Shown here piece after piece: positions 15,097 to 59,402 of a stretch of 64,000 bases of DNA. The number at the start of each line of letters is the position of its first letter. The first letter of the stretch is position 1. The notes beneath the pieces are model-generated. The model had not been told where the DNA came from, did not search any database, and saw only the letters and a list, made by a program, of their open reading frames with translations. A program made the position numbers and the translations under genes. The stretch is taken from positions 102,744 to 166,743 of IMG/VR virus record IMGVR_UViG_3300049218_000083, one strand, 5' to 3'. Source of the stretch: a virus.

Positions 15097-15099
15097 GTC

Positions 15100-15225: not shown

Positions 15226-15258
15226 GATTGTCTCCTAAGTTAATGAAGTGAAAGAAAT

Positions 15259-15336: not shown

Positions 15337-15343
15337 AAGAAAC

Positions 15344-15430: not shown

Positions 15431-15438
15431 AGAAACTT

Positions 15439-15514: not shown

Positions 15515-15530
15515 AGGGAAATTAAATCGG

Positions 15531-15636: not shown

Positions 15637-15655
15637 ATACATAACCAAATTTAAC

Positions 15656-15730
15656 TGGCGGGATGCGAGGGATTCGAACCCCCATAACTAGTTTTGGAGT
15701 CTAGAGTCCTAGCCATTGGACGAGCAACCC
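15656..15730 (-). tRNA. tRNA-Trp(CCA)
   Basis: Acceptor GGGTTGC/GCATCCC with one T-T mismatch, anticodon loop CTCCAAA, T arm GGGGG-TTCGAAT-CCCTC-like, G73 and CCA. The end of the upstream HNH gene overlaps its 5' part. Confidence 0.9.
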
Positions 15731-16059: not shown

Positions 16060-16077
16060 GATGTATCCTCTGTAAAT

Positions 16078-16151
16078 TGGTGGGATTGATGGGAGTTAAA
16101 CCACGTGACCTCTCACCGTTAAGTGAGCGCTCTACACTGAGCTACAACCCC
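16078..16151 (-). tRNA. tRNA of uncertain identity (six-base anticodon loop)
   Basis: Acceptor GGGGTTG/CAATCCC, D arm GCTC...GAGC and an ACCA end are good. The anticodon stem CTCAC/GTGAG is perfect but encloses only six bases (TTAACG), so the anticodon may be AAC (Val) or TAA. The D loop lacks GG. Probably degenerate. Confidence 0.6.
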
Positions 16152-16192
16152 GAAGCGACGGTTCTCTGCTCTAGTACCGACAACACGTAATT

Positions 16193-16271
16193 TGGTGGAC
16201 CGCCAGGGATTCGAACCCTGCTAGTTTCCTCGGTGCAAGCGAGGTGAACACCCCAAGCATTCCCGCAGCCC
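16193..16271 (-). tRNA. tRNA-Ala(TGC)
   Basis: Acceptor GGGCTGC/GCGGTCC, anticodon arm CCTCG-CTTGCAC-CGAGG, T arm CAGGG-TTCGAAT-CCCTG, ACCA end. Confidence 0.9.
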
Positions 16272-16276
16272 AAAAC

Positions 16277-16351
16277 TGGTAGTCCGTGACGGGATTGAAC
16301 CGCCGACCCTCTCCGTGTAAAGGAGACGCTCTCCCGCTGAGCTAACGGACC
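16277..16351 (-). tRNA. tRNA-Val(TAC)
   Basis: Acceptor GGTCCGT/ACGGACT, D arm GCTC...GAGC, anticodon arm TCTCC-TTTACAC-GGAGA, T arm GGCGG-TTCAATC-CCGTC, ACCA end. Confidence 0.93.
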
Positions 16352-16364
16352 ATGGGATAGAATT

Positions 16365-16426
16365 GGCAGAGTCGTCTGGTAATCGGCGCGACCCGATACC
16401 CTGGCTTGCAACCAGACGACTCTACC
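16365..16426 (-). ncRNA. Long hairpin element in a tRNA slot
   Basis: A 16-bp helix (GGTAGAGTCGTCTGGT with ACCAGACGACTCTGCC, one G-T pair) encloses 30 nt, which include a second perfect hairpin ATCGG-GTCGCG-CCGAT. It occupies the spacing of a tRNA between tRNA-Val and tRNA-Asn. It may be a small stable RNA or a processing signal. Confidence 0.5.
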
Positions 16427-16431
16427 ATTTT

Positions 16432-16507
16432 TGGCTCCGTGTGCAGGATTCGAACCTACGAATACTCCGTTAACAGCGGAGGCTATTACCACTCTAGTCA
16501 ACACGGA
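16432..16507 (-). tRNA. tRNA-Asn(GTT)
   Basis: Acceptor TCCGTGT/ACACGGA, anticodon arm CTCCG-CTGTTAA-CGGAG, T arm GTAGG-TTCGAAT-CCTGC, G73 and CCA. It is the most upstream tRNA in the operon. Confidence 0.95.
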
Positions 16508-22797: not shown

Positions 22798-24696
22798 TTA
22801 GAGTTCGCATACCCCGGAGCTACAAGCCAAGTTTTGGGCACCGATGGTGTTGTCGTCTTCTTCTCTGAAGGCAGTCCAGTCGATACTTCCTTTAGATGCT
22901 GCGACCAGTTCCTTGTATTTTTCTTCGGTGACTTCTTCATATGGTGCCTGACGGTATGAACCAGTATCACGAGGCAGGAAGCTTACTCCTGACAGGCGGT
23001 CTATGTGTCTGTAAACCCAAGCACCGACTTCCATCCATTCATCGTCACCAACATACACAGTGATAGAAGGCTTATGTTCGCACCAGTTGTCCTGGAATAC
23101 CAACCAGTGTTCCAACTGATGAAGAGCGCTCACGTCCTTTACCAAACGTGAACCTTCCGGTGCTTTCATTGGGAATGAAAACACCCAATTGCTCTTGTTG
23201 TAGAAATCTTCTTCAGCCTTGTATCCTTTCTCCATCATGTAAGTCGCGAGTGGATCGGTCTTAGCCAAACGAACACGTCGTATGTAGTATTGTGCATATC
23301 TTGGATGAATACCAGATGCGGCATCTGTCAACTGTGAAACTGTACCTGATGGCTTGACGCACGTGATAGCAGCTGAATGTTCGATGCCAAGAATATCAGC
23401 AAACTCAACGTTGGTGTCTACAGCCTTTTGCCGAAGTGTACGCAGCAGCTCTCCACCCCAAACACTGTTGTCATCGTCACCCAATCCGTTCAAATGTGGA
23501 TTGTCCATAATGCCGGTCAAACTGACGCCCAACAAACGCTCTTCCTCAGTGTTCTTTTTCCACTTCTTGTTGATGTAGCGGAAATCTGAGACTGTGCTCT
23601 GGATAGTTCCCAGGATAGCAGCCAAACGAACTTTTCTTAAAAGATCTTCTGGCCTATCGTTTGCACGAACAACAACCTCAGACAGATTGCAGAACTGATA
23701 TGGACGTAGGATGATTTCAGAACATGGGTTGGTTCCATAGTCGATCTCAGGATCACGGCGACCAAACTGTGACGCAATCAACTGCGATGCCTTACGTGAG
23801 AAAATACCACGCTCGCCGGAATGACTCTTCAACAATGCCAACCACTCTGACATGAATGTTTCCATGTCTGGCTTGACTTCGTACACCGCGCTGATGTTGG
23901 CAAGGGCACGCTGTCCGTTGTCGAGCCACCAGTTGCCAGACTTCGCCTGACGCATCTTATCATCGTTCAAGTCGGTAAGGCTAATCAATGCTGAACGGCG
24001 AACACCGCCAGACACAATGACGTCTGCAACCTTACACACTACGTCATGACACTCGAGAGGACTTAGCTTTCTTCCTCGTGCTTTGTTGAATACTGTGACT
24101 GTGAACTTGAGCAAGTCGACCAATGGCTCTGGTCCTGAAGCTCGTCCACCGAATGTCTTGAGTCTTGCTCCTGCTGGACGCAACTGGCTGACATCGTATT
24201 TCGCAATCTTTCCAGAATACAGGAGTGATACGAACTCACGGAATCCAGATGCCCAGCCAAGTTTGGAGTCCTTAAAGATAATGGTGGTATCGGTTTCGTG
24301 AAGCTCATCTGGCACCTCAGGAAGCTTGTTGGTGTAACGTGATTCGACGCTGAATCCTACTCCGCAACCGCAGCTGAGCAAGTACATAATTTCGTCAAAT
24401 GATTTTGGATTGTCGATTGGAAGATAAGAGCAATTGTATCCTGCGACATTGTCCTTGTCGAGCGCTGGACCAGCGGTCATCAAAGAACGCATGGATGGCA
24501 TGACTTCCAAGTTCAGAATTGCTGAACGAAGTTCATCCCAAGGAATCTTGCGGGACTTGATTCGTCCTTTGAAAAAGTCGATGTATCGGTCTACGGTTTC
24601 TTCCCAAGTTTCTCTTCGACCCAGATCGTCACGGAAGCGAGCATAGTGTCCTACATGGATGAAAGCTTGATAGATTGTCGGCAACTCAACACTCAT
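22798..24696 (-). CDS. nrdJ: Adenosylcobalamin-dependent (class II) ribonucleotide reductase
   Basis: A 632-residue monomeric reductase. GYNCSYLPID carries the first redox cysteine. NPCSEIILRPYQFCNLSEVV carries the radical-site cysteine, and ITCVKPSGTVSQ is the substrate-binding loop. The C-terminal NLACSSGVCEL holds the shuttle cysteines. No nrdB is present nearby, consistent with class II. It makes deoxyribonucleotides and needs B12 from the host. T4 itself uses class I (NrdAB). Confidence 0.92.
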   Translation of the reverse strand: MSVELPTIYQAFIHVGHYARFRDDLGRRETWEETVDRYIDFFKGRIKSRKIPWDELRSAILNLEVMPSMRSLMTAGPALDKDNVAGYNCSYLPIDNPKSFDEIMYLLSCGCGVGFSVESRYTNKLPEVPDELHETDTTIIFKDSKLGWASGFREFVSLLYSGKIAKYDVSQLRPAGARLKTFGGRASGPEPLVDLLKFTVTVFNKARGRKLSPLECHDVVCKVADVIVSGGVRRSALISLTDLNDDKMRQAKSGNWWLDNGQRALANISAVYEVKPDMETFMSEWLALLKSHSGERGIFSRKASQLIASQFGRRDPEIDYGTNPCSEIILRPYQFCNLSEVVVRANDRPEDLLRKVRLAAILGTIQSTVSDFRYINKKWKKNTEEERLLGVSLTGIMDNPHLNGLGDDDNSVWGGELLRTLRQKAVDTNVEFADILGIEHSAAITCVKPSGTVSQLTDAASGIHPRYAQYYIRRVRLAKTDPLATYMMEKGYKAEEDFYNKSNWVFSFPMKAPEGSRLVKDVSALHQLEHWLVFQDNWCEHKPSITVYVGDDEWMEVGAWVYRHIDRLSGVSFLPRDTGSYRQAPYEEVTEEKYKELVAASKGSIDWTAFREEDDNTIGAQNLACSSGVCEL

Positions 24697-25203: not shown

Positions 25204-25416
25204 TTACTGATTCTCAACCCAGAACTTTCCACATACACCACAGCTACAATGTCTGTAGTATTTGGTTGGTTCAGCATATCCATCATCAGAATGATTTGTA
25301 ATACCTACCATCTCTTTTGGGTGGCTGCATTCTTCTTGTATTTTTGTAAGTTCTTCGCCAGCACGCTTTATAGCATACTTTGCGTCTTGGGCTCGTTCAA
25401 ACAGTGACTTTGTCAT
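25204..25416 (-). CDS. Small zinc-binding protein
   Basis: A 70-residue protein MTKSLFERAQDAKYAIKRAG... with a helical first half and HCSCGVCGKFW plus an upstream ECSHP, a probable zinc site. It overlaps the end of thyX. Confidence 0.6.
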   Translation of the reverse strand: MTKSLFERAQDAKYAIKRAGEELTKIQEECSHPKEMVGITNHSDDGYAEPTKYYRHCSCGVCGKFWVENQ

Positions 25417-26110
25417 TTCGTATCTCATCAAAAGCTGCAATGGTGACTGGGACAATTGGTGTAATCAGTTTCTTCATAGCCTGGGCATAGACACGAACTT
25501 CATGTTGAGCATGGTCGTGGTCACGTAGAACCGTGAAGTTGTTAAGAAGGTTGTGTAAATTTACAGTAGCGAACATCTTGGAATACATCGCTACAGGCAA
25601 CACAATACGCGCCAACTCCCGAGGAGTACCTTCTTTCAACAATCTTAGATAGGTCCTGTACGATCGTGTAATGCTTGCGTACATCTGGGTTTGGATCCAC
25701 TGCGCTTTTGGATGCTGCTCTTTAGTGCGCTGCTGTTTGTTTGCAACACTCTGAGTCGTAATTTGATCTAGATCTGGAATATAGAATCCCATATCCAGTT
25801 CGGTGTAACGAGCGCTCACTTCATTGTATGACCAAGTACGATGACGATGCCATTGGCGATACACGAAAATTGGAGCCTTGACTTCAAACGTGAATGTAAC
25901 AGACTCGAATGGTGAAGTGTGATGATTCTTCATTAAGTAATGAACCAGCTTGGCGTCCTTACCAACAGCTTCTCCAGTTTCTGGTTCGCGCCAGTCTGCA
26001 TCGTAAGATACTCGTGCTGAACGAACCACAGAAAGATCATCACCCATGTGATCAACCAAGCGGACATATCCGCCGTTGAGAACATCGATTTGTAAATTAT
26101 TATCTCTCAT
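25397..26110 (-). CDS. thyX: FAD-dependent thymidylate synthase
   Basis: A 237-residue protein with the ThyX signature RHRTWSYNEVSARY (RHRxxSxNExSxRY) near residue 88, and RVSYDADW and HTSPFESVTF upstream. It methylates dUMP to dTMP using methylenetetrahydrofolate and FAD. No thymidylate synthase of the ThyA or dUMP hydroxymethylase type is seen in the window. Confidence 0.95.
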   Translation of the reverse strand: MRDNNLQIDVLNGGYVRLVDHMGDDLSVVRSARVSYDADWREPETGEAVGKDAKLVHYLMKNHHTSPFESVTFTFEVKAPIFVYRQWHRHRTWSYNEVSARYTELDMGFYIPDLDQITTQSVANKQQRTKEQHPKAQWIQTQMYASITRSYRTYLRLLKEGTPRELARIVLPVAMYSKMFATVNLHNLLNNFTVLRDHDHAQHEVRVYAQAMKKLITPIVPVTIAAFDEIRNDKVTV

Positions 26111-39781: not shown

Positions 39782-40499
39782 TATCTATTTCCTCTTTCAG
39801 TAATTCGTCACACTTTCTCAAAAACCGTTCATGCTGTCCGGCAAGACGAATCTGGAAGTTATGCCAGAAAGACTCCTCGCCAGTCAGCGGATCAGCAAAC
39901 GTCGTACCAAGACCATACCGTGGCATACCGTCCGCAAGAGCCCAGCCTTGCGGAGCCTCGAGTGGAGCAGCTTCAAATTCAGCTGGCATATAGAACTTCA
40001 CGGGAATACCGTGCTTTTCACATAGCCAAGTGTACTCTTCAGCCACATCAGATCTCGAAGTTTCTAGAGCCGATGGTCTACCAATCGTCAAGAAGGTTGA
40101 ATCACTTATCGCCATCGCGCTAGGAGCCACGAAGACATGCTGACCATTCTGTATATGGTTGGTACGTTGGATGTTTCCAACCAACGACCCATTATACGCT
40201 TGTTCGATGTAACTATCAATGGCTCTATCGTTCAGTGGCACGGCATCGATATCCAGGAACATGATAACATCGAAGTCATACTGTTTTGGAACCTTACCCA
40301 AGAATTCTTTTCTGACGACTGAACCGTTGAGGTGCCAGGTGCAATCCATCGAGAAACCATGCGGCATCTGTGTCAGGATCTGGAAAAACGGCACATTGCT
40401 CTTGTTGAACTTGTCGACGACTTTACGTTGTGCCGTGATCGCTTCCTTTGGAATGTTGCTCATGTAGAATGAGAATATTCCTGCTCTTATTTTATCCAT
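39723..40499 (-). CDS. Glycosyltransferase-like protein with DxD motif
   Basis: A 258-residue protein. DFDVIMFLDIDAVPLND near residue 75 has the DxD metal and nucleotide-sugar site of GT-A glycosyltransferases. The acceptor is unknown. It is in an island with a second glycosyltransferase and a methyltransferase. Confidence 0.7.
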   Translation of the reverse strand: MDKIRAGIFSFYMSNIPKEAITAQRKVVDKFNKSNVPFFQILTQMPHGFSMDCTWHLNGSVVRKEFLGKVPKQYDFDVIMFLDIDAVPLNDRAIDSYIEQAYNGSLVGNIQRTNHIQNGQHVFVAPSAMAISDSTFLTIGRPSALETSRSDVAEEYTWLCEKHGIPVKFYMPAEFEAAPLEAPQGWALADGMPRYGLGTTFADPLTGEESFWHNFQIRLAGQHERFLRKCDELLKEEIDNGKPIDVQPSSSTGTKATG

Positions 40500-41119
40500 A
40501 CGAATTTCTCTCTTCTGTCGTAGACTTTACCAAACAGTTCGCCGACTGCTTGTTTGATTGGTGGATGATGCCAGTCGTCGCCGATCAACACGCCTCCCTT
40601 TTTGAGGATGCTTGCCCAGTTTGATAGGTCATTCTTCACAGAACGATAATCATGGCCGGCATCGATATACACTGCGTCCGGATACAATCCCAACTTCGTG
40701 AAGGCGACGAAACCGTTCTGTGAGTCGATCGGGAATGGTGTGATGTAAGGATCGAGACCCTTGTGGACGTTGTTGGATAGGAACTGCTGATAGAGTGTTG
40801 GTCTGCCGTTGACGAGGTTGAGACGGTTGCCGGGATAATGTTGATCACCGACCCAATGCTCTTCACTCCCCAACCATGTATCTATACAGACAACCTCAAA
40901 GTCTTGCGCGTAGTCTAACACGACGCTGGTCATCGCTCGCGCGGAGCCGCCCATCCAGGATCCAACTTCGACGATCAGCTTTGGATTGAAATGGGGTGAC
41001 AGGAACTCTTTGAAACAAGGATGGTTACTGACAAATCCGTGGCCGTTGAATGGCATGAGTTCAAGATCCTTGTATGGATCATGATCACCAAACAACTTCT
41101 TACGAACTATTTGCGCCAC
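40487..41119 (-). CDS. Class I SAM-dependent methyltransferase
   Basis: A 210-residue protein with LIVEVGSWMGGSARAM (motif I, E-x-G-x-x-x-G), VVCIDTW (motif II) and YIDAGHDYRSVKNDL, the MTase_24/TylF-like pattern. These often methylate sugars or small molecules. It overlaps both neighbouring glycosyltransferase genes. Confidence 0.8.
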   Translation of the reverse strand: MAQIVRKKLFGDHDPYKDLELMPFNGHGFVSNHPCFKEFLSPHFNPKLIVEVGSWMGGSARAMTSVVLDYAQDFEVVCIDTWLGSEEHWVGDQHYPGNRLNLVNGRPTLYQQFLSNNVHKGLDPYITPFPIDSQNGFVAFTKLGLYPDAVYIDAGHDYRSVKNDLSNWASILKKGGVLIGDDWHHPPIKQAVGELFGKVYDRREKFVWIK

Positions 41120-41844
41120 GGAAATCCTTCTGGATATCGCTTTGCCATCTCCTCGTTTCCACGAATGAAGAACGAAGAACTGACCGAGATACCTGTACTG
41201 TCAGTCGTATAGTTTACCGTGTATTTGCCAGTCCCAATACCGGGAGCTGTTGCGGCCAGTGCTTTCACTAATGCTCGATCGACTTCCATCACGTTTGGCT
41301 CTCGAGCCTTACGATACCAAATCGGAGTGACGAACACCGCAAGGTTCCTGTGAATGAAATAGCAGTTGACATCGACAAGTCTGTCATCCTTGTGTAGGAT
41401 GGTAGGATAGTCTGGGCCGAGGCTTTCACAATCATCGTTACACTCGACGCCATTAGCATCGATAACCTTGCGTAGACTCCATCCCCAACCATACTGACCG
41501 CTGGTTACAGCCGCGATGCAACTCTTGATGTGATTAGCGTCGATGTAATTGTCATCGTCAAGGTACATGACATATTCACCTTCTGCCAGGAAGGTTGCTG
41601 CCGCATACATTCGATGACCATTCCATCGATCAGCACCAACGATACGTGGCATCTCAATGACTTCGTGTTTGTGGAAACCTTTGATCGATGCGTTGTATCC
41701 AATCTGCTTGACTTTGGAATGTGCAGGTGGCCCATCAGCCATGATGATATGCTGAATGTCAGCGTGCGTTTGTTGCGCAACTGACGCGATGCAGCGCAGT
41801 AGTGAATCACGACCAGTTGTAGCCGTGACGACAGTGACAAGCAT
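41107..41844 (-). CDS. Family 2 glycosyltransferase
   Basis: A 245-residue protein beginning MLVTVVTATTGRDSLLRCIA, with EYVMYLDDDNYI (DxD) near residue 87, a typical GT2 layout. It may glycosylate modified DNA bases or a virion protein. Confidence 0.83.
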   Translation of the reverse strand: MLVTVVTATTGRDSLLRCIASVAQQTHADIQHIIMADGPPAHSKVKQIGYNASIKGFHKHEVIEMPRIVGADRWNGHRMYAAATFLAEGEYVMYLDDDNYIDANHIKSCIAAVTSGQYGWGWSLRKVIDANGVECNDDCESLGPDYPTILHKDDRLVDVNCYFIHRNLAVFVTPIWYRKAREPNVMEVDRALVKALAATAPGIGTGKYTVNYTTDSTGISVSSSFFIRGNEEMAKRYPEGFPWRK

Positions 41845-43020: not shown

Positions 43021-43854
43021 TTATGCTACCTCGAAAGTTAAATTAGGATCGAAGAGTGGGTTCTCATCCGAGACCTTTGGATTGCGTGTGTAACCACGCG
43101 GATTGCACATGACCTTACACTCACCAATGGCATAGCGGAAGTTGTCATGCGTGTGACCATGCACCCAGTTCTTGATATTTGGATGGTCAAGGATGAGTCC
43201 GCTCAGGTCACTGCTGTAAGCGTAGTTCATCGGGTCATTCCCGTATTTAGGATGAACTGAATTGAAACTCGGTGTGTGATGTGTCATGACCAAGAATTCC
43301 ATGTCCGGATGCTGGTCAAGCTCGGTTAAAAGACAATTCTTGGTAATGTTGTGTTCATCCATGGAGTCCGTTGGATGATATGAAGGTGCATTGTTGTACG
43401 GCTGACTTGTACCATACTTGATCAGGTAGAAGTCGTTCATGCCCTGGCGCGCTGCGTAAATCGCAAGCGGATCACCCTTGTTCATATCTGTCCACATCGT
43501 TGCGCCAAACAACATGGTCTTGTCTGTAAGCTTGACAGCTTCGTTGTCCAACACCGTGATGTTTGTGATTTGGCGGTCAGTCAGAAAGTCACGCAATGTC
43601 TGGATCGTATCTCCAAACTTTCCATGGTAGTGTTCGTGATTGCCAGCAATGTAAAAGGCTTGCTTATACTTGGTTGACACCATCCTGAAGAACGCATCGC
43701 AGCGCTCTTTCAGCTTCTTAGATCCACCGTCTGTCCGATGACGTTGTAAGAACGCAGCCACAGTGATGTCACCAGATAGCAGCAACGTTTCACCACCGTC
43801 TAACTCAATCGGGCAAAACTCCAGATGGAGATCGCTCACCAGATGTACCTTCAT
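43021..43854 (-). CDS. Calcineurin-like metallophosphoesterase
   Basis: A 277-residue protein with the phosphoesterase motifs LVSDLHLEF, LSGDIT, IAGNHEHY, VMTHHTPS and VHGHTHDN in order, so the di-metal site is complete. Substrate unknown. Confidence 0.9.
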   Translation of the reverse strand: MKVHLVSDLHLEFCPIELDGGETLLLSGDITVAAFLQRHRTDGGSKKLKERCDAFFRMVSTKYKQAFYIAGNHEHYHGKFGDTIQTLRDFLTDRQITNITVLDNEAVKLTDKTMLFGATMWTDMNKGDPLAIYAARQGMNDFYLIKYGTSQPYNNAPSYHPTDSMDEHNITKNCLLTELDQHPDMEFLVMTHHTPSFNSVHPKYGNDPMNYAYSSDLSGLILDHPNIKNWVHGHTHDNFRYAIGECKVMCNPRGYTRNPKVSDENPLFDPNLTFEVA

Positions 43855-48437: not shown

Positions 48438-49378
48438 TACTTGATCTCACATTCAACCATCACTTCCGTCAGAAACGCAGCTAGATTGATTTCCTGATCC
48501 GCAACCTGCGAAGCATATTGCAGATACTTACCCAACAACACAACCAAAATCGGATGAGACTCTGGCTTGAACATATCGTTCATCTTCAGATAGATGTCAC
48601 GCATGATGACACCCGAATCAGCATCCGAGTTGTTTCCAACCCACTTCCGCAACGCTTTGAAGTCTTTGGCTTTCAAGAAGCCAACAATTTCCTCAACCTT
48701 GGCATCAGTTGCCTGGGCAAGAATACCTTCATCGATCGCACCTGACGCAGCATACTTCTGCAGTTCACCCAATGTCCGGCGAAAGTCTGGAAAGAATCGC
48801 GTGATAACCGCAGCTACCACTTCCTTCTTGTATGGGACATTCTGTTCATCCAGAATACCAAGCGCACGCTTGAAGAAGTCAGCAGCCATCTTCTGTTTGT
48901 CAGATTTCTGCAGCTTGAAGTCAATCGGTGGACATCGGCTATGAATCGCCGGAATGATACGGTTCTTGTGATTACAGGTGAAAATGAAAGAACAGTTTTC
49001 ACCAAACTCTTCGATCGGACCACGAAATGCGTCCTGGGCATCAGCAGTCAATCCATCAGCCTCATCCATGATGATGGCTTTGCGGCCACCACCCAACGAT
49101 ACACTAGAGGCGAAGTTTGGAACCTTGACCTTGATAGTGTCAACACCACGATCCCTACCTGATCCATTCAATAGGATGTAGTCAACACCAATTTCTTCGC
49201 ACATAGCACGCGCGATAGTTGTCTTGCCAGTGCCGGGAGTGCCGGTCAGCATCATATTCGGAATTTCACCCTTGTCGACGTATGTCTGGAAGATCTTCTT
49301 GGTCACTTCCGGAACGATACAATCTACCACTTTCTTCGGGCGATAAATCTCGACCCACAGAATATCATTACCAATCAT
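48437..49378 (-). CDS. Clamp loader large subunit (gp44 type)
   Basis: A 313-residue AAA+ ATPase with Walker A GTPGTGKTTIARAM near residue 45, Walker B AIIMDEADG near residue 105 and an SRC box (IHSRCPP) as arginine finger. It loads the gp45 clamp at primer ends. Confidence 0.93.
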   Translation of the reverse strand: MIGNDILWVEIYRPKKVVDCIVPEVTKKIFQTYVDKGEIPNMMLTGTPGTGKTTIARAMCEEIGVDYILLNGSGRDRGVDTIKVKVPNFASSVSLGGGRKAIIMDEADGLTADAQDAFRGPIEEFGENCSFIFTCNHKNRIIPAIHSRCPPIDFKLQKSDKQKMAADFFKRALGILDEQNVPYKKEVVAAVITRFFPDFRRTLGELQKYAASGAIDEGILAQATDAKVEEIVGFLKAKDFKALRKWVGNNSDADSGVIMRDIYLKMNDMFKPESHPILVVLLGKYLQYASQVADQEINLAAFLTEVMVECEIK

Positions 49379-50481: not shown

Positions 50482-51204
50482 TTAGGCTCCTACGACGCCT
50501 TCCTCAAGCAACTGAGGCGCATCGAAAGAAGACTGCTTGGACTCGATCGAGATCCAATACTGAAGCTTCTTGGTCTTGTGTGTGAAAAGAGAAACGCCAA
50601 CCTTGGAAATCTGCACCGTGTATTCGCCTGGGATGACCTTCAGGTTGTCGATCTTGAAGACTGCCTTGAAGTTGGCAGAAGCAACGGTGCCCAGCTCTAC
50701 GCTTGCACTGTCAACTACTTCACCCTTCACGTCGACCGCAGAGATGGTGATGTTCTCACCAGCTTCACCGGCGACAACGATGTTTGGACACTTCAGGATG
50801 CTCGATACGTTGAACACCCAATCGAAGATTTCTTGAGTTAAAGTCAGATCGACGTTGAACTTCTCGATCTTCAGTTCCTTGGATGGCGGACCCATGATAA
50901 ACTTGGTGTCAGTGAAACGCTGACGAATCTTACCCTTGCCATTCAGGCCAAGGAACACGAATGACTCGTTTTCGATTTCCACTTCCAACGCGCTCTTGTT
51001 CAATGACAACAGCGCCAGCAACTTGTTCAGGTCATAGATACCAAACTCATTCTCGAACGTCTCATCTACAACCGCACGAGCAAGGATTGTCTTGTTCTGG
51101 GAGATGGTACGGATCACATTGCCTGGCTTGATAATCAAACCGCTGTTGATCGATGCAAAATTCTTCAGGACTTCAACAAAGTTCTCACTCAATTTCATGT
51201 GCAA
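50482..51204 (-). CDS. Sliding clamp (gp45 type)
   Basis: A 240-residue protein with the length and strand/helix layout of T4 gp45 (MHMKLSENFVEVLKNFASIN... and KEKTK-like C-terminal strands), encoded directly before the clamp-loader group. It encircles DNA, tethers the polymerase and activates late transcription with gp55. Confidence 0.88.
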   Translation of the reverse strand: MHMKLSENFVEVLKNFASINSGLIIKPGNVIRTISQNKTILARAVVDETFENEFGIYDLNKLLALLSLNKSALEVEIENESFVFLGLNGKGKIRQRFTDTKFIMGPPSKELKIEKFNVDLTLTQEIFDWVFNVSSILKCPNIVVAGEAGENITISAVDVKGEVVDSASVELGTVASANFKAVFKIDNLKVIPGEYTVQISKVGVSLFTHKTKKLQYWISIESKQSSFDAPQLLEEGVVGA

Positions 51205-51233: not shown

Positions 51234-51854
51234 TTAACGCTTGGCGTATTCGGTAATTTTCACCTGTAATTCTTGCACTGTACCATCATTTCTGATTACA
51301 GTTTGCAGCAACGGATGACCGATCCATGCCCACTCCGAATAGTGAACCTCTGGATATTGCGGCATGGTTTGAACTGTTCCATCCCAATTGTTTGCTTCGT
51401 TGATGGCAACAGCAGTGCTGTACCAGGCTGGCCTCTCACCACGCATGATCTGTGCAAGCTTGCCGCCAACGTGCATGACCATTTCGATTTCATTTGGAAA
51501 GCGAACATCAGTTATGACGTAATCCTTGGTCGTGTCCAAACTGCGCAGCAATGCACCAACCCATAGATCCTTTCCGAACACATTGCGACCAGCTTCAGTG
51601 CCCATCCATTGGAGCACTAGACGTGGTGTGATAGTCTTCTTCAACACAGCTGACCAGTACTCGTCAGGCTGTTCACGAAACGCACGTGATTCCGGTGTGT
51701 CACCTTCAAGTAAATGACGTGGCCATCCGAAAATAACCGCAACAGCATCTTTCAGAATCTTAGCAAACGATACTGGAGTGAATCCGTCAGCTGCTAGGAG
51801 CTCTCCAGCAGTTCCCTTGCCCGATCCAATGATGCCTAGAAATCCAACGATCAT
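51234..51854 (-). CDS. Deoxynucleoside monophosphate kinase (gp1 type)
   Basis: A 206-residue protein with P-loop GIIGSGKGTAGELL and VITDVRFPNE, the pattern of T4 gp1-type dNMP kinases. It phosphorylates dNMPs, possibly including modified ones. Confidence 0.85.
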   Translation of the reverse strand: MIVGFLGIIGSGKGTAGELLAADGFTPVSFAKILKDAVAVIFGWPRHLLEGDTPESRAFREQPDEYWSAVLKKTITPRLVLQWMGTEAGRNVFGKDLWVGALLRSLDTTKDYVITDVRFPNEIEMVMHVGGKLAQIMRGERPAWYSTAVAINEANNWDGTVQTMPQYPEVHYSEWAWIGHPLLQTVIRNDGTVQELQVKITEYAKR

Positions 51855-52000: not shown

Positions 52001-52227
52001 ACTGGGTCCGCCGTTACACCAAGAACACCCTTGGCATCTGGCTCCGGAAGGCTCAACACCTTCCAAGATTTACCAAGTGGTTCTTCTCCATCTGGTGCCT
52101 CTTCAATGATCGCGATGACTTCACCAACCTGAACACCTGCTAATCCAAGTTGTTCACGCCTTTCTCCGGTTACAGAAACGACTGAGAACTTACGCAGTTC
52201 GAATGAAGTATCGATACCCTTGATCAT
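51997..52227 (-). CDS. Small hypothetical protein
   Basis: A 76-residue beta-rich protein MIKGIDTSFELRKFSVVSVT.... It is coupled to the glycosyltransferase gene upstream through a TAATG overlap. No family recognised. Confidence 0.6.
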   Translation of the reverse strand: MIKGIDTSFELRKFSVVSVTGERREQLGLAGVQVGEVIAIIEEAPDGEEPLGKSWKVLSLPEPDAKGVLGVTADPV

Positions 52228-53213
52228 TACAGATTTCCTACCAATTGCGCAACCGCAGCCATGTTACCTTGGAACGCATACGTACCGACGTGGAACGTGC
52301 GCATCCATGGACACAACCAAATTTCTCCACCCATGTTGCGCCACTGTTGACAGAAGAAATAGTCTTCTGACAAATAACGCTCAGATCCACCGACTTCAAC
52401 AATTTCACCCTTCTTGCGTTCACCCAGGTCCTGTTGAATTTCCATCTGACGCTTCTTGTCGATGATGCAATCAAAGTATGCGTGAATGTAACGAGATCCA
52501 TCAAAGTTAGCTTGACCGACATGGTCAGGCTTGTAGCTGTACTGAGGATACTGAAGAGCCCAACGCAAGAAGACCTCGCGCTTGATCATCATGTAACCTG
52601 TACCGATCTCCATAACCTTCAGTGGTTCACCGACGTTGAACTGACCTGTTCCAGCAACTGGATTGAAGACATAGTCTCCAATGGTTTGTTCAACTTCCTG
52701 AGAGGTCAACTCTTTTGGAACATCATACAGTGGCTTGGCGATAACTGCCCCATCTGCAGTTGGACCAGCAGCCTGTGCAGCCATGTTTTCAGCAGCAATC
52801 TCGATGTTCTTCTCGTTGACCGTCTTGATCAGGCTATGACGTTTGTTGATAGCTGTAATCGCACTGTTCCACTTGATAGACTTCTTTGGATATGGTGCAC
52901 CAATGATGTCCTTGTCGAGTGCCATCAAAGCCAACACATCTTTCGGATCGAAGTGAATATCGGCATCGAGGAACAACAAGTGTGTGTAACCTGAACGCAG
53001 GAACTCATCGACCAGGTAGTTGCGAGCTCGCGTAATCAAGGATTCGTTGAAGATGAATGAGAAGCGATTCTCCATTCCGTACTGACCGCACATACCCTGA
53101 AGGTCAAGGCATGCTTTCATGTACATACCAAGGCACATACCACCATACATTGGAGTGGCGATGAAAAGCTTGTTCTTACGTAGCTGCTCAACACTGATTG
53201 ATAAATTTACCAT
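52227..53213 (-). CDS. GT-A glycosyltransferase, ANP1/GT62-like
   Basis: A 328-residue protein with FNESLITRARNYLVDEF and THLLFLDADIHFDP (DxD) near residue 75, the pattern of Anp1/Mnn9-like transferases in phages. It lies two genes downstream of a base-oxidising dioxygenase, so a role in glycosylating modified DNA bases is plausible; a virion target is the alternative. Confidence 0.75.
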   Translation of the reverse strand: MVNLSISVEQLRKNKLFIATPMYGGMCLGMYMKACLDLQGMCGQYGMENRFSFIFNESLITRARNYLVDEFLRSGYTHLLFLDADIHFDPKDVLALMALDKDIIGAPYPKKSIKWNSAITAINKRHSLIKTVNEKNIEIAAENMAAQAAGPTADGAVIAKPLYDVPKELTSQEVEQTIGDYVFNPVAGTGQFNVGEPLKVMEIGTGYMMIKREVFLRWALQYPQYSYKPDHVGQANFDGSRYIHAYFDCIIDKKRQMEIQQDLGERKKGEIVEVGGSERYLSEDYFFCQQWRNMGGEIWLCPWMRTFHVGTYAFQGNMAAVAQLVGNL

Positions 53214-53282
53214 TTGGGATCCTGTTCTTGTTATTAGAGGCGGATGATTACCAATAATACCGCAGCAAACTGTAAAAGGAAA

Positions 53283-53849
53283 TCAACCTAAGATCAATTC
53301 GTCAATGAGATACTGAATGATCTTGTGCTGATCTTCTGGTGTTTCGTTCACATACGTTTCAGACAGCGGCATCAGAACCATGTTTGACATGAGATTTTCG
53401 ATCTTCGTTTCACGACCACGCTTGAACGTATCTGTTTGCGTATCGTTCCGAACTTCATGACGAGCATGAATTGTTGCTGGACTTGCTGTAATGAAGATGA
53501 TCTTCAGGTCGAGCGTAGGATCATCCGCAAGCAATTCCAAAAAAGACTGATTGAAAAGACGGTCACCCTCGAACAGCACATTGCCTGTTGTCTCTTTGAC
53601 AAACTTTACAGCTTGCGGCTGAACAGCCATTGAGAGGCGATCAGTTCCACCGAACGGTTCACCCTCTGGGTACTTACCGATGATGTGCAAGTTTGATCCA
53701 GACATATAGAGTGTAGGGACTAGCTTCACATCCTCACGCTCAAACCATGTCGCACCTGGTCGACGATCTTCGGTTGACTTGATGAACTTCTTCATTATGG
53801 TCGACTTGCCAGTCGCTGGTTCGCCGCCGATTGCTATAATTTTTCTCAT
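53283..53849 (-). CDS. P-loop kinase (candidate modified-base DNA kinase)
   Basis: A 188-residue protein with Walker A GGEPATGKSTIM near residue 8 and FITASPATIHARHEVRND further on, like small P-loop kinases. Its ATG overlaps the stop of the dioxygenase gene, so the two are co-translated. Phage 5-hydroxymethyluridine DNA kinases belong to this superfamily; that specific activity is inferred from context only. Confidence 0.7.
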   Translation of the reverse strand: MRKIIAIGGEPATGKSTIMKKFIKSTEDRRPGATWFEREDVKLVPTLYMSGSNLHIIGKYPEGEPFGGTDRLSMAVQPQAVKFVKETTGNVLFEGDRLFNQSFLELLADDPTLDLKIIFITASPATIHARHEVRNDTQTDTFKRGRETKIENLMSNMVLMPLSETYVNETPEDQHKIIQYLIDELILG

Positions 53850-55147
53850 CCGAACAAATGCTCCAATGAACTCTCTTCTTCAAGAGGGTGATATTTGTCA
53901 ACTAGAACCTGACCAAAATTCTGGCCAAGGAACTGATACCATTCATCCGACTCCCACATACCTGGGCTGATTCCATTCCAACCGTTTCTCCAAAGCTTGT
54001 GGTCCTGGTTCTTGCGGCGCGACTCTACAAACTGAAAGCGAGCATCTTCGTATCGTTTCTCACCCAGTTCGAGCATCTTCTCTCGCAAGTAACACACCAG
54101 GCTGATACGCTCAAGCTCGACACCCTCTTTCGCAACGATTGGGGTGTTCCCATGGATGTACTCATGGTTGGAAACCAACAACAAATCACCCGGACGAATG
54201 TTCACTGCTGCTCTGATCTCTGGGAGAATCAGATAGCCACCTTGATAGTCAAGGTTCTTGGCAACGACAGTTAGGTTCGAGAACCCAGCGGCAAAGTCGC
54301 CTGCGTCGCGGTGCGCTGCTGTACGGAAGTTCTTGTTGACAGTGATAGTCGTCAGTGGTGTTCCAGGAATCCGGAACGCTGGATCGATCTTATCCGCTGC
54401 CTCCATCTGTGCAGCATATCGCTTTGGTAAGAACTCCTTGAACGCTGAACTCAGCCGCTCCATGAATGGATAGCAAAGTTTCCAGGTGTCGAAATTCTGT
54501 GCCGTGTACGCTGTAGCTCGACCATACGGAATGCGCGGATACCGATCAAACCAGCCGGCAATACCAGAGTCGACAGGATTAGCGTAGAAGGTATCGCTGA
54601 TCAAATCAGACAACACCCACTTGGCTTCTTTGCGGACCTTCTCGAGAGGGAGGCCATAAAGACCGTTCAGCCACTGTTCAAAATCGAACTTGTGTTTCTC
54701 TTTCTCGGACGTCAACCAAACCATGCCGCGAGTGCCCTGCTTCTTGTTAGCCACGAAGCGGATCTGCTCGATGTCAGTTTTCAAGTCTGTGAAATGACTG
54801 GAGCCAAGGTCGACAAGATATTCGAGAACGTCGATTTGCTCATCAGTCACCCAGTCGCGGTTCAACAGCTTTGGGCCCAGGGAGCCAGCTGCCAGGCCAC
54901 GGTTTTGAGTGGCGTGCACAGCTCCGCGTAGACCGTCATAGGCACCGATCTGTTCAGCCTTGGTAAAGTAATTCTTGCGAAACTTCAGGATGACGTTACT
55001 TTCATCGTTCACCTGTTCAGCACCCATGGGCAGCTTGAGATATACGTCGCAGTCTTCATCCAGCAACGTATCGTAATGAGCCTCGTCTAGAAATTGACCG
55101 AGGAGGTGGTCACAATCATGTTTCTCGAGAACTAGAACTTTTGTCAT
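53846..55147 (-). CDS. TET/JBP-type 2-oxoglutarate/Fe(II) dioxygenase with a clamp-binding-like tail
   Basis: A 433-residue protein. Residues about 280-370 form a TET/JBP core: NFRTAAHRDAGDFAAGFSNL carries the HxD iron ligands, GGYLILPEIRAAVNIRPGD the central strands, YIHGNTPI the distal histidine and ERISLVCYLRE the 2-oxoglutarate arginine. Family members hydroxylate thymine or 5-methylcytosine in DNA. The C-terminus EEESSLEHLFG closely resembles that of the phage polymerase (EESTLESLFGE). Confidence 0.83.
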   Translation of the reverse strand: MTKVLVLEKHDCDHLLGQFLDEAHYDTLLDEDCDVYLKLPMGAEQVNDESNVILKFRKNYFTKAEQIGAYDGLRGAVHATQNRGLAAGSLGPKLLNRDWVTDEQIDVLEYLVDLGSSHFTDLKTDIEQIRFVANKKQGTRGMVWLTSEKEKHKFDFEQWLNGLYGLPLEKVRKEAKWVLSDLISDTFYANPVDSGIAGWFDRYPRIPYGRATAYTAQNFDTWKLCYPFMERLSSAFKEFLPKRYAAQMEAADKIDPAFRIPGTPLTTITVNKNFRTAAHRDAGDFAAGFSNLTVVAKNLDYQGGYLILPEIRAAVNIRPGDLLLVSNHEYIHGNTPIVAKEGVELERISLVCYLREKMLELGEKRYEDARFQFVESRRKNQDHKLWRNGWNGISPGMWESDEWYQFLGQNFGQVLVDKYHPLEEESSLEHLFG

Positions 55148-55190: not shown

Positions 55191-55349
55191 CCCGATTCAA
55201 CCGCATATTCTGGTATATATGCGATACCACTTTCATCTACTACAATTCTATACTTTATGAAGAGTCCTGTAAAGTTACACCATCGTACCTTGTCCTCCGT
55301 TTAGAAGTTCACATCGCTATCGTCATCACCCGTATCCATCACGCTTTCG

Positions 55350-57002
55350 TCACCCGCCAGTCGCGACCAGCTTCGCCATCTCTTCAACCGTCTGGTCGAG
55401 AAGGTCGCCGGTAGCCGCGAGGATGTCCGAAGCGGAAATCGTACGCTTGATACCGAAGGCAGTCACCTCAGCACCGCCAGTGGCCTTGTTCCGGATACAA
55501 CGCACCGAGTGCTTGTATTTGGAGGAAACCGCTGCAACGTTGCGGGGATCGCCGAAAGTCATGGCAGATATGTCGAACGTGGTAGTCTTACCAGCAGCCT
55601 GACGGAGCGCGAGAAGCGCATCCTTCTTGTTACCAGCAGCCGTCGTCGCCGTCTTGGCAGGAGCCATCGGGCTGGAAGCAGGTTTCGGGGCAACAGGAGG
55701 CTGGTTAGCCGCAGCCGCATGAGCATTCTTACGCAAGGCGACCAGCGGATCCTGGGCAGTAGCCGCAGGAGCAACCTTCGCAGCCTGTGCAGGAGCCTGG
55801 GCGACGTTCTTCTGGCCAAACACGATCTTCTTGTCGAGGTCGGCGTCGATCTTCGAGTAGAAGTCCATGTAAACCGTCTTGACTTCGTTGTCGAAACGAT
55901 TCAAGCACAACTCGATGGCCTTGCGGCGAGTCTTGAAGATGCAGTAAGCACGAACGATGTGGGTCAACCGGCGAGTGGAGATCACTTCCGAGACCGAACC
56001 AGCGGCATAACCCTGGCGGATCATCTCAGCCCACTTCGCAAGGTGCGCCGCGAACTGCGTCACGTTCAGCTCAGGTTCCGGCTTCAGTTCGTTGAAGAGT
56101 TTCTCGAGAATCGACCGCTCGGTCTTCTCGCTGGGATATTCCTGCTCCACCGTGATGGCGAACCGTTCCAGGAACGCGTCGTTCAGCACGTTGGCACCGA
56201 TGAAGCGACCGTCGTCCGAGCCTTTGCCCTTGGTGTTGGCAGTAGCCATCACGTTGAAGCCAGGAGCCGGAGTGATGTACTCACCACGCTTCTTGTTGAA
56301 GTAGCCTTTGCCTTCGAGGATGGGCTGCAAGCACAGGAGGCGCTCAGAGCCATAGTCGGTTTCGTCCAGGAGAAGAACCGCGCCACGCTTCATGGCGACG
56401 ACGACCGGACCATCGCGCCACTTGGTGTCACCATTGACCAACTCGTAGGCACCGATCAGGTCGAACTCGTCAGTCTCCTTGGTGATGTTCACGCGGATCA
56501 ACTCACGCTGTGCCTCGTTACAAGCCTGGGCGACCATCAGGGTCTTACCGTTGCCGGAGAGCCCAGTGATGTAGACAGGGTAGAAAATCTTCGAGGCGAT
56601 GATTCCCTTGAGATTGTTGTAGAAGCCGAAGGGGACGTAGCCAGGCTCCTTCTCAGGGATGAAGTTATCTTTGATCACGGCAGGTTCACCATCCGTGATG
56701 TGGAGAACGTTAGCAACCGCTGTGGCGACCATGTTTTCGTTGGCCGCCTCGCGCACCACGTTGGCCGGATGCAAGAAACGGGAGTCGGTGGCGTCACCTG
56801 CCACGCGGAACTTGCCCCAACCAGCCTTGTATGTATCGGCGGCGAGGAACCGGGGATTCTTGTAGCCTTTGGCTTTCACGAAGTCATCGACCTGTTTAGA
56901 GGTCACGATATCGGTGCCGTAGAAGGCAGAGATTTCGGCGCAGAACTGCTTCTGCTGCGCTTCATCGTAGGATCGGGATTTAACAGTCACTTCAGTCTCC
57001 AT
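55350..57002 (-). CDS. CobS/MoxR-like AAA+ ATPase
   Basis: A 550-residue protein. The AAA+ core (residues about 130-350) has Walker A ITGLSGNGKTLM, Walker B VLLLDETDYG, sensor FNVMATANTKG and FLERFAI, as in CobS/MoxR proteins. A long alanine/proline-rich linker leads to a small C-terminal domain. It is followed in another frame by an acidic tail (see findings). Its partner is the CobT-like VWA protein upstream. Such pairs act as metal-insertion or protein-remodelling machines elsewhere. Confidence 0.85.
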   Translation of the reverse strand: METEVTVKSRSYDEAQQKQFCAEISAFYGTDIVTSKQVDDFVKAKGYKNPRFLAADTYKAGWGKFRVAGDATDSRFLHPANVVREAANENMVATAVANVLHITDGEPAVIKDNFIPEKEPGYVPFGFYNNLKGIIASKIFYPVYITGLSGNGKTLMVAQACNEAQRELIRVNITKETDEFDLIGAYELVNGDTKWRDGPVVVAMKRGAVLLLDETDYGSERLLCLQPILEGKGYFNKKRGEYITPAPGFNVMATANTKGKGSDDGRFIGANVLNDAFLERFAITVEQEYPSEKTERSILEKLFNELKPEPELNVTQFAAHLAKWAEMIRQGYAAGSVSEVISTRRLTHIVRAYCIFKTRRKAIELCLNRFDNEVKTVYMDFYSKIDADLDKKIVFGQKNVAQAPAQAAKVAPAATAQDPLVALRKNAHAAAANQPPVAPKPASSPMAPAKTATTAAGNKKDALLALRQAAGKTTTFDISAMTFGDPRNVAAVSSKYKHSVRCIRNKATGGAEVTAFGIKRTISASDILAATGDLLDQTVEEMAKLVATGG

Positions 57003-57043
57003 AAAGTAAGTTCACCAGGCCAGTAGTTTGAGGGTTAGTGTTA

Positions 57044-57068
57044 CGATAAGAAAGAGGCGCAGTTATCG
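57044..57068 (-). promoter_or_regulatory. Conserved leader hairpin, copy 3
   Basis: CGATAA and TTATCG pair perfectly around CTGCGCCTCTTTC, the same loop as copy 1, 42 nt upstream of the AAA+ gene start. Confidence 0.5.
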
Positions 57069-57071
57069 TTT

Positions 57072-59402
57072 TTACAATCCCTCGGCGACTTCGGCGGCGA
57101 ACTCGCGGACGATAGTCTTCACGTTCTTTTTCTGGTTCATGTGGTGGTTAAAGCTGGACTGGGCAGCTTCCTGGGACATTCCAACGCTGACCCGCAATTC
57201 CGCCTTGTAAGTCATCTTGGCGGTGTCGATGTAGTAGTAGCTATCATAGCCGAGGTCCGGAGTCGAGACCCAGCCGTTCTCCTGAAGACGCTTGGTCAGC
57301 TCCCGTGCTTTCGGAGCCAGCGTTGGGTTTCGGCCGATCTTCATAGTGATGATAGCAGAGTCGCCGAAGAAGTAGCCGATATGGCGGCAACCAGTAATCT
57401 GGCCAACCAGCTTGGTCAGCGCAACCTGATACGGAACAAACGGCGAGATGGTATTGTCCGGCAACTGGCTCAGTTTGGTCTTCGGGTCAATCAAGCCGAA
57501 GATCGTTTTCTGCCGCTCAGAGTGAGACATACGACCCTGCTCATCACCGAAGCTGATGAAGCCATCACCGTCACCGTCGGTCAAGTGAATCACACTGGTG
57601 ATATCCACCTTGTGATTATTCTTGAACTCCTCGATTATTTGACGAGAAGCAAGCAGCATGTGCATGTAGGGAGTGCCGCCAGTCTGGTAACCCATGGTAG
57701 CAATGTTCACCGCCCAGTTAGGATTCTTCGTGAGAATGTCTTTCACAGTTTGATCGCGGTTGGAAGAATTACCGATCTGGGCCAGCGCGTGGAGCATGTT
57801 CATCGCACGCTGATAGTTGGAACCACGCAGATTCGAAGAGAACATATGGCGAAGGTTGAATCCACTGCAGTAAGAGCGCTCCGCGAGCATCACACCGTTG
57901 GTACGGTTGGCCTGGATCAACGATCCGCCAGTCGAGTAGTTGTAGCTATGCTGGTCACCGAAACCGTAAACGTCGAACGGGATGTTCACACGCTTGCAGA
58001 AGGTCGTCAGGATCAGCATCTGTTCAACGATCTCCTTGATGATTGGGTCCATCGAGCCACTCAGGTCCAGGAACAGAATCATGCCGTGGGACTTGCCCTT
58101 GGTCACCGTGGTGATCTTACGGAAGATGTCATTCGTGAACTTGTAGCGGTTCAGCTTCTTGTCATCCAACTCGCCGGTCTTGGCGGTCAGCTGGCGCGCA
58201 TACTGGTTGGCGTTTTTGCGCATCTCGAATTCTTTCACCAACATGTCGATGTAGTTCTTGTTGCGACGAAGGAACGCAGTATGGAGTTGCGCACACAGGG
58301 TGCCGAAGTTGTAACCCTCGGCAGAACAAGCACGACCGAACTCTGTCTCGAACCGTTCCAGAACAACCTTGTGAGGAACGATACAACGCTTCAGGTCAAC
58401 CTTCGGCAAGTCGGCGTAGATAATCTGGGGAGCGCTGCTGTTGATCAGGTCGTCTTCCATCTTACGCTGGGCAGCATCAGTTATGGAGTCCGGCTCCGGC
58501 GTCGAATCACGCTCTTCCTTGCTCAGGCCAGCGCCAGGAGCGCTCGGGCCATCTTCCACTTCACCCTCGCCGTCAGCGTCGCCATCAGATTCACCATCGG
58601 CATCGCCGTCAGATTCTTCATCACCCTCATCCCCATCACCAGAGCCTTCGCCGTCGGCGTCATCGCCGTCGCTCTCGTCTTCACCGTCATCGGGATCCGT
58701 AGAGCCAGCCTCGGTTTCGCCTTCTTCGTCACCCTCACCTTCGTCGCCCGACTCACCAGCTTCTTCCTCGTCGCCGGCATCGTCTTTCTCTTCCTTCTTT
58801 TCCTGTTTCTTCTGCTCGTCCTTGGCCTGATACTTTTGGAAGTCGTAGATCTCGCGAGCGAGCTCAGCAACTTCATCCCAAGTCTCGACGGTGGCCACAC
58901 GGTCAACGAACTTCTTTTCGGCAGGTGAGAACTCGACCAGCACAGACGCGCCGATCTTGAAGTAAAGGTTGATTCGGTCGATCAGACCCAGCTTCGAGAG
59001 GTCCTTGATCTTCTTCACACCGAAAAGGTCACGGTCGGCCAGAGCCTGATAAGCTTCGGCGAACGGTTTCCGCAGGCCAGGATACTTGCGCTTAACGATT
59101 TTCTCAATACGCGCATCCTCGACCACGTTGAGGAACCGTTTGATATTCTTGCGCTTCGTGTCATACACGATGGCGTCATGCCAGCCATCGGCAGGCGTGT
59201 GCAGCGCGTGGGAGATCTCATGACCCATCAGAAGGTCATAGATGTTAGTGTCCATGTCTTTCCAAACCGGGCAGTGAAGCACGCGGTTCTTCAGGTCGAA
59301 CTTCGCGGTGCGGATCTGGCGGTGGTGGACGGTGATATTCTCGGCAGCCATCAGCTTGGCTAGAACAGACTTGTTAGAGGTCAGGTCAGTTTGCTTTTTC
59401 AT
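57072..59402 (-). CDS. Zincin plus von Willebrand A protein, CobT-like
   Basis: A 776-residue protein. The N-terminal part has MGHEISHALHTPADGWHD near residue 68, an HExxH zinc site. Residues about 205-300 are an extremely acidic D/E/G/S linker. The C-terminal part is a VWA domain with ILFLDLSGSMDP and HLTDGDGDG (MIDAS). The CobT-like VWA and the downstream CobS-like AAA+ ATPase are a typical pair. G+C content and codon use are visibly higher than in neighbouring genes. Confidence 0.85.
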   Translation of the reverse strand: MKKQTDLTSNKSVLAKLMAAENITVHHRQIRTAKFDLKNRVLHCPVWKDMDTNIYDLLMGHEISHALHTPADGWHDAIVYDTKRKNIKRFLNVVEDARIEKIVKRKYPGLRKPFAEAYQALADRDLFGVKKIKDLSKLGLIDRINLYFKIGASVLVEFSPAEKKFVDRVATVETWDEVAELAREIYDFQKYQAKDEQKKQEKKEEKDDAGDEEEAGESGDEGEGDEEGETEAGSTDPDDGEDESDGDDADGEGSGDGDEGDEESDGDADGESDGDADGEGEVEDGPSAPGAGLSKEERDSTPEPDSITDAAQRKMEDDLINSSAPQIIYADLPKVDLKRCIVPHKVVLERFETEFGRACSAEGYNFGTLCAQLHTAFLRRNKNYIDMLVKEFEMRKNANQYARQLTAKTGELDDKKLNRYKFTNDIFRKITTVTKGKSHGMILFLDLSGSMDPIIKEIVEQMLILTTFCKRVNIPFDVYGFGDQHSYNYSTGGSLIQANRTNGVMLAERSYCSGFNLRHMFSSNLRGSNYQRAMNMLHALAQIGNSSNRDQTVKDILTKNPNWAVNIATMGYQTGGTPYMHMLLASRQIIEEFKNNHKVDITSVIHLTDGDGDGFISFGDEQGRMSHSERQKTIFGLIDPKTKLSQLPDNTISPFVPYQVALTKLVGQITGCRHIGYFFGDSAIITMKIGRNPTLAPKARELTKRLQENGWVSTPDLGYDSYYYIDTAKMTYKAELRVSVGMSQEAAQSSFNHHMNQKKNVKTIVREFAAEVAEGL

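What the first reader, a model, noticed from the sequence alone, without database searches (positions are those of the whole stretch)
52227..55147. Candidate DNA hypermodification module: TET/JBP dioxygenase, P-loop kinase, glycosyltransferase
The dioxygenase has the full TET/JBP iron and 2-oxoglutarate residues. Its stop overlaps the start of a P-loop kinase, and a GT-A glycosyltransferase follows. In known phages, hydroxymethylated bases are phosphorylated by P-loop kinases or glycosylated. No dUMP hydroxymethylase is visible and ThyX is present, so hydroxylation after replication, on thymine or 5-methylcytosine in DNA, is the likely first step. The combination may define a new hypermodified base.
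Basis: partly seen in the sequence, partly recalled or inferred. Interest (0 to 1): 0.85.

Follow-up and report, generated by a model that had tools for sequence, protein, structure and literature searches.

The report
Phage TET–kinase DNA-base modification cassette
A T4-like phage carries two linked genes, an enzyme that hydroxylates bases inside DNA and a kinase of the family that usually comes next, a known kind of DNA-camouflage pathway, but unlike nearly all its relatives it lacks the enzyme that normally finishes the job, and the sugar-transferase next door is an older neighbour rather than part of the set.

Summary
On the minus strand lie a TET/JBP dioxygenase (53846-55147), a P-loop kinase overlapping it by ATGA (53283-53849), and a GT-A-type glycosyltransferase (52227-53213). 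They belong to a complete circular 166.7-kb T4-like phage genome; the contig ends overlap by 126 bp.

The reading needs two corrections. (1) The true module is TET plus kinase. In 116 of 134 related kinase loci the kinase goes with an amino acid:DNA transferase (ADDT, PF18724), the hallmark of thymidine hypermodification. Here ADDT is absent from the whole genome. (2) The glycosyltransferase is a resident of the clamp region. It occurs in collinear phages without TET or kinase (82% identical GT) and in several near-complete TET-less genomes.

Thymine in DNA is the more likely substrate. The phage has ThyX, no TS-family hydroxymethylase and no C5-MTase. C5-MTase is missing from 31 of 32 records with this TET type but present in 6 of 6 with the divergent Melnitz type, which also differs at one conserved residue (R355).

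Best model: T to 5-hmU in DNA, then phosphorylation, with an unknown or no final transferase. Such pathways are already predicted and annotated; this is a truncated variant. Product unproven.

The parts
53846..55147 (-). TET/JBP 2-oxoglutarate/Fe(II) DNA-base dioxygenase, 433 aa
   Evidence: PF12851 2e-23; phrog_24024 full length; invariant H279/D281/H332/R347; fold matches NgTET1/TET2/CcTET
53283..53849 (-). P-loop kinase, Ploopntkinase3 family, putative 5-hydroxymethylpyrimidine DNA kinase, 188 aa
   Evidence: PF18751 3e-6, just above cut-off; Walker A and EGDR motifs retained; 116 of 134 relatives found with ADDT
53846..53849 (-). ATGA overlap of the TET stop and kinase start (translational coupling)
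   Evidence: sequence read directly
52227..53213 (-). GT-A-type glycosyltransferase (phrog_1574), resident of the clamp region; association with the TET cassette positional, not obligatory
   Evidence: phrog_1574 3.8e-56; Anp1 in 32 of 34 members; fold; found in TET-less relatives
53214..53282 (-). 69-nt gap between kinase stop and GT start
   Evidence: sequence
55245..55273 (-). sigma-70-like promoter match upstream of TET (TTTACA-17-TAGAAT); no more than chance expectation
   Evidence: 2 found, 5.0 expected
51234..51854 (-). deoxynucleoside monophosphate kinase (flank of the cassette)
   Evidence: phrog_139 1e-36
50482..51204 (-). gp45-like sliding clamp (flank)
   Evidence: phrog_223 9e-58
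55350..57002 (-). AAA ATPase upstream of the cassette (flank)
   Evidence: phrog_249 4e-107
25397..26110 (-). ThyX, FAD-dependent thymidylate synthase
   Evidence: PF02511 9e-53 at G000:128188-128805

Best explanation
This is a two-gene DNA-base modification cassette, TET plus kinase, inserted between a T4-like phage's AAA-ATPase gene and a resident glycosyltransferase/dNMP-kinase/clamp block. The TET/JBP enzyme hydroxylates the 5-methyl group of thymine in replicated DNA to give 5-hydroxymethyluracil (substrate inferred). The co-translated P-loop kinase then phosphorylates or pyrophosphorylates that hydroxyl (inferred from its family and context). In relatives an amino acid:DNA transferase (ADDT) would replace the activated group with an amino acid. 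This phage has no recognisable ADDT, so its DNA either carries phosphorylated hmU or uses an unrecognised nucleophile or transferase. The bulky or charged base most likely protects the DNA from host restriction (inferred). The glycosyltransferase is a neighbour whose acceptor is unknown.
For: TET and kinase identity and intact motifs. Kinase-ADDT linkage in 116 of 134 loci; several of the 18 exceptions are cut contigs or carry a divergent ADDT. The TET-(GATase/GNAT/amidoligase-like)-ADDT-kinase cassette recurs in two different backgrounds, T4-like next to the clamp and small phages next to terminase. ADDT absent here by Pfam and by own and Cr30-based HMMs on six-frame translation; the genome closes by a 126-bp end overlap. 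No PF00145 C5-MTase and no PF00303 in the genome; ThyX present. PF00145 in 1 of 32 records with this TET type (that one partial) against 6 of 6 with the divergent Melnitz type. Position 355 is Arg in 164 of 168 of this type and Asp in 46 of 51 Melnitz-type. Nearest TET (L019) and nearest kinase (L099) both sit with ADDT. Relative DLP6 (TET 50% identical) has restriction-resistant DNA (PMC8228603).
Against: No biochemistry is known to me for this TET clade; thymine rests on the absence of C5-MTase, clade context and one residue that is confounded with phylogeny. The host could supply 5mC. The kinase match is only just over the Pfam cut-off and was not compared directly with a tested 5-hmU DNA kinase. 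No terminal transferase was identified. DLP6 lacks this kinase and ADDT, so its resistance does not test the kinase step, and the paper does not say which enzymes failed.
Confidence: 0.55

Rival explanations
1. The TET product (hmU or hmC) is glycosylated by the adjacent GT, giving a base-J-like or glucosyl-hmC-like base, and kinase and GT act as one module.
For: The GT is immediately downstream and has a GT-A fold with a DxD motif. 35 loci combine TET with this GT and no kinase or ADDT, and an alternative cassette TET-GT-B-GT exists at the same locus. P12024L has a TET followed by an annotated glucosyltransferase.
Against: The GT occurs in collinear relatives without TET or kinase (L177/L178, 82% identical), in TET-less contigs of 157-168 kb with no PF00303, and in Sinorhizobium and other phages that gave no TET hit. 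It sits 69 nt after the kinase rather than coupled to it.
Confidence: 0.22
2. TET acts on 5-methylcytosine made by a host methyltransferase, giving hmC that is phosphorylated or glycosylated.
For: Characterised phage TETs act on 5mC with C5-MTases (Burke et al. 2021, own knowledge; cited in PMC12730594). Melnitz-type phages carry MTase-TET-kinase.
Against: No C5-MTase here or in 31 of 32 records with this TET type, against 6 of 6 in the Melnitz type. The cassette shares ADDT with thymidine pathways. Position 355 differs between the types.
Confidence: 0.2
3. The cassette is decaying: ADDT has been lost, the kinase is vestigial, and the DNA carries at most 5-hmU.
For: Nearest TET and kinase relatives are with ADDT, so absence here looks derived. 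DLP6 keeps a TET without this kinase or ADDT.
Against: Kinase ORF full length with all family-invariant residues and tight ATGA coupling. Partial contigs L173 and L174 have the same direct TET-kinase junction.
Confidence: 0.2
4. The kinase is a polynucleotide or tRNA-repair kinase unrelated to base modification.
For: The phage has a large tRNA array; weak profile similarity to polynucleotide kinases.
Against: Linkage to ADDT and TET across backgrounds; best curated match is Ploopntkinase3.
Confidence: 0.07

Closest known systems
Thymidine hypermodification pathways of phages M6, ViI and phiW-14 (Lee et al. 2018, 2022; summarised in PMC6449724)
   Same: A 5-hmU DNA kinase activates the hydroxymethyl group for a transferase; ADDT-family proteins occur in relatives of this cassette.
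   Different: There hmU is made at the nucleotide level and incorporated; here no TS-family hydroxymethylase, a TET instead, and no ADDT.
Rhodococcus phage Tonitrus five-gene system (PMC11955845)
   Same: TET-like protein plus 5-hmU DNA kinase, annotated as thymidine hypermodification.
   Different: Tonitrus has an aGPT-Pplase2 transferase and a ParB-like gene; this phage has neither beside the cassette and no ADDT.
Phage TET/C5-MTase/glycosyltransferase cytosine hypermodification (Burke et al. 2021, own knowledge)
   Same: Phage TET/JBP dioxygenase acting on DNA bases followed by further decoration.
   Different: Needs a C5-MTase, absent here; the neighbouring GT is not tied to TET.
Methylophilales phage Melnitz MTase-TET-X-kinase cluster
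   Same: TET and the same kinase family in one cluster.
   Different: Melnitz has an HhaI-like C5-MTase, a divergent TET (about 27% identical) and Asp rather than Arg at the position of R355.
Stenotrophomonas DLP6 and Caulobacter Cr30 (T4-like isolates)
   Same: TET 50% and 43% identical in similar replication regions; same GT family; Cr30 also has kinase and ADDT.
   Different: DLP6 lacks this kinase and ADDT; Cr30's genes are dispersed and it has ADDT and a PF00303 protein.

Membership tests
TET/JBP dioxygenase | PF12851 domain above cut-off with HxD...H and the 2OG-binding Arg | tested here: met
   82.9 bits; H279, D281, H332, R347 invariant
TET/JBP dioxygenase | TET fold | tested here: met
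   Top 26 PDB matches are TET/CMD1 entries, E 1.8e-9 to 7.7e-7; TM by query only 0.30-0.47
TET/JBP dioxygenase | Oxidation of 5mC or T in DNA | not testable with these tools
   needs an enzyme assay
5-hmU DNA kinase (thymidine hypermodification) | P-loop kinase of a base-modification-associated family | tested here: met
   PF18751 27.3 bits against 27; family linked to ADDT in 116 of 134 loci
5-hmU DNA kinase (thymidine hypermodification) | Homology to a biochemically tested 5-hmU DNA kinase (M6, ViI) | not tested
   no direct comparison was made
5-hmU DNA kinase (thymidine hypermodification) | Phosphorylates 5-hmU in DNA | not testable with these tools
   needs an enzyme assay
Thymidine hypermodification pathway | Source of 5-hmU: TS-family dUMP hydroxymethylase | tested here: not met
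   No PF00303 in the genome; TET is the proposed substitute
Thymidine hypermodification pathway | ADDT/aGPT-Pplase transferase | tested here: not met
   No PF18724, no HMM hit in six frames
Phage TET cytosine hypermodification | Phage-encoded C5-MTase | tested here: not met
   No PF00145 in the complete genome
GT-A glycosyltransferase | GT-A fold with DxD motif | tested here: met
   D83/D85 invariant; fold matches at low TM; Anp1 below cut-off for the window protein
DNA glycosyltransferase | Transfer of sugar to a hydroxymethylated base | not testable with these tools
   distribution independent of TET argues against obligatory linkage

The most novel reading that the evidence does not exclude
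The phage ends its pathway at the kinase step: thymine is hydroxylated in DNA by TET and then (pyro)phosphorylated, so the genome carries phosphomethyl- or pyrophosphomethyl-uracil as the final base, or an adduct made by a transferase unrelated to ADDT.
Probability: 0.2. Interest if true: 0.8.

Novelty: new variant of a known kind. Interest (0 to 1): 0.55.

Why it matters
It makes a sharp question testable: can a phage TET hydroxylate thymine in DNA and feed a kinase pathway that otherwise starts from a special nucleotide? Cultured relatives exist (DLP6, reported restriction-resistant; Cr30, with TET, kinase and ADDT), so nucleoside analysis is within reach. The locus also shows one insertion site in T4-like phages carrying exchangeable finishing genes (ADDT type or GT-B type), a tidy system for studying how DNA camouflage chemistry is swapped.

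Tried and rejected
GT as a core part of the module: rejected as obligatory, because collinear TET-less relatives keep it. C5-MTase in the genome: none. dUMP/dCMP hydroxymethylase: none. Hidden or divergent ADDT: none with four kinds of profile (PF18724, cluster 3, cluster 44, Cr30). GATase, amidoligase-like, GNAT, GT-B and PLP-like profiles of relatives: none in this genome; a profile of another neighbour gene gave one hit at E=0.001 in the clamp-loader region, taken as noise. Incomplete assembly as the cause of the missing ADDT: unlikely given the 126-bp end overlap. Pfam and PHROG scans of 20 larger unassigned genes found no obvious replacement transferase. Sequence search of PDB for the GT: nothing. 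The papers that define the pathways (Iyer 2013, Lee 2018 and 2022, Burke 2021) are not in the library; statements about them rest on own knowledge or on papers citing them.

Full report
What is there. TET and kinase overlap by ATGA; the GT follows after 69 nt. TET matches PF12851 at 2e-23 and PHROG 24024 over nearly its whole length. Its iron and 2OG residues are invariant among 32 relatives, and its model (pLDDT 83) has TET-family structures as its top 26 fold matches. The kinase matches PF18751 just above the curated cut-off and keeps Walker A and the family's EGDR motif. The GT is a GT-A-like protein of PHROG 1574.

Where it is. The window is the last 64 kb of a 166,743-base IMG/VR record. 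The first 126 bases match the end of the record exactly and gene order continues across the ends (UvsW at one end, gp55 at the other, near neighbours in DLP6). The genome is therefore taken as complete, and absences are informative. It is T4-like, with homologues of many DLP6 replication and structural genes, clamp loader, gp46/47 and gp55 among them.

What is missing. No PF00145 C5-MTase, no PF00303 thymidylate synthase or hydroxymethylase, and no ADDT by PF18724 or by family HMMs on six-frame translation. ThyX is present. Positive controls in other genomes rang for PF00145, PF00303 and PF02511; for PF18724 the positives were Cr30 and two IMG/VR contigs.

What relatives show. A scan of IMG/VR found 413 stretches encoding TET relatives; 80 were kept. 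With kinase and GT scans and named phages this gave 241 loci clustered by gene family. The usual neighbours of TET are a class II glutamine amidotransferase, a GNAT or weakly amidoligase-like protein, ADDT (PF18724 1.6e-20) and the kinase. ADDT is present in 116 of 134 kinase loci; of the 18 others, several are truncated and several carry a divergent ADDT. The same set sits beside the clamp in T4-like phages and beside terminase genes in small phages, which argues for a functional cassette. Another group of loci has TET followed by a GT-B enzyme and the GT. The closest relatives of the window's TET (L019) and kinase (L099) are both with ADDT, so its absence here looks like a loss. Partial contigs L173 and L174 also show a direct TET-kinase junction.

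The glycosyltransferase. L177 and L178 carry an 82%-identical GT with the same flanks but no TET or kinase; nucleotide alignment shows collinear AAA and GT genes with about 1.9 kb extra in the window between them. The 50-kb contig of L178 has no TET, nor do GT-bearing contigs of 157, 162 and 168 kb, which also lack PF00303. Sinorhizobium phages phiM12, phiN3, phiM7 and phiM19 and Rhizobium phage RHph_I1_18 carry the GT and were not among the TET hits. The GT is thus a resident gene; it may still act on DNA, but it is not tied to TET.

Substrate. Among records with the window's type of TET, 1 of 32 has a PF00145 match, and that one is partial; in the Melnitz type it is 6 of 6. The residue two after the conserved Tyr353 is Arg in 164 of 168 of the window's type and Asp in 46 of 51 of the Melnitz type. 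In mammalian TET2 and NgTET1 the corresponding position is, from own knowledge, a His that contacts cytosine. This is consistent with different substrates, but the two types are also separate clades. With the shared ADDT context and ThyX this favours thymine. Host-made 5mC remains possible. Cr30 also carries a PF00303 protein, which was not resolved into thymidylate synthase or hydroxymethylase.

Experimental link. A review lists DLP6 DNA as restriction-enzyme resistant (PMC8228603). The original paper names 18 enzymes, but its sentence on the outcome is incomplete and does not say which failed (PMC5349666). DLP6 has TET and GT but no hit to the kinase or ADDT profiles.

Mechanism and certainty. 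Shown: gene identities, intact motifs, genome completeness, absence of ADDT, C5-MTase and PF00303, cassette linkage in relatives, independence of the GT. Inferred: hydroxylation of thymine in DNA, phosphorylation of the hydroxymethyl, protection from restriction. Unknown: what, if anything, follows phosphorylation, and what the GT does.

Novelty. TET-kinase-transferase modules have been predicted (Iyer et al. 2013, own knowledge) and annotated in phage Tonitrus (PMC11955845). This locus is a variant lacking the transferase, hence 'new variant of a known kind'.

Noticed in passing
window 196-1035 and G000:101436-102935: A gene with a weak ribose-phosphate pyrophosphokinase match next to a NAMPT/NAPRTase-family gene, resembling a phage NAD+ salvage pair.
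   Followed up: no
window 6699-16507: Dense array of 36 tRNA genes; the extra tRNA-Val call at 49103-49174 lies inside the clamp-loader gene and is probably false.
   Followed up: no
window 40487-41844: CmcI/rhamnosyl O-methyltransferase-like gene next to a family 2 glycosyltransferase, with a calcineurin-like phosphoesterase nearby at 43021-43854.
   Followed up: no
window 55350-59402: AAA ATPase plus a 776-aa protein labelled peptidase in PHROGs, a pair conserved across the T4-like loci.
   Followed up: no
GenBank DLP6, Cr30, S-CBWM1: TET homologues are annotated as 'SNF2 DNA repair protein', and the Cr30 kinase as 'terminase small subunit' (PHROG 800 label); both look like misannotations.
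   Followed up: partly
L006:4010-8090 (Melnitz): HhaI-like C5-MTase, divergent TET, a 427-aa protein without Pfam match, and a kinase of the same family; a possible cytosine version of the pathway.
   Followed up: partly
L019:7489-8577 and L179:341-1402: A conserved protein that looks like a PLP-dependent enzyme (own reading of the sequence) close to ADDT in near relatives.
   Followed up: no
L003 (Cr30): Cr30 has TET, ADDT, a weak TET-associated glycosyltransferase match, an annotated inositol-1-phosphate synthase and the kinase within about 9 kb.
   Followed up: no
window 22798-24696: Ribonucleotide reductase with a B12-dependent insertion domain match.
   Followed up: no
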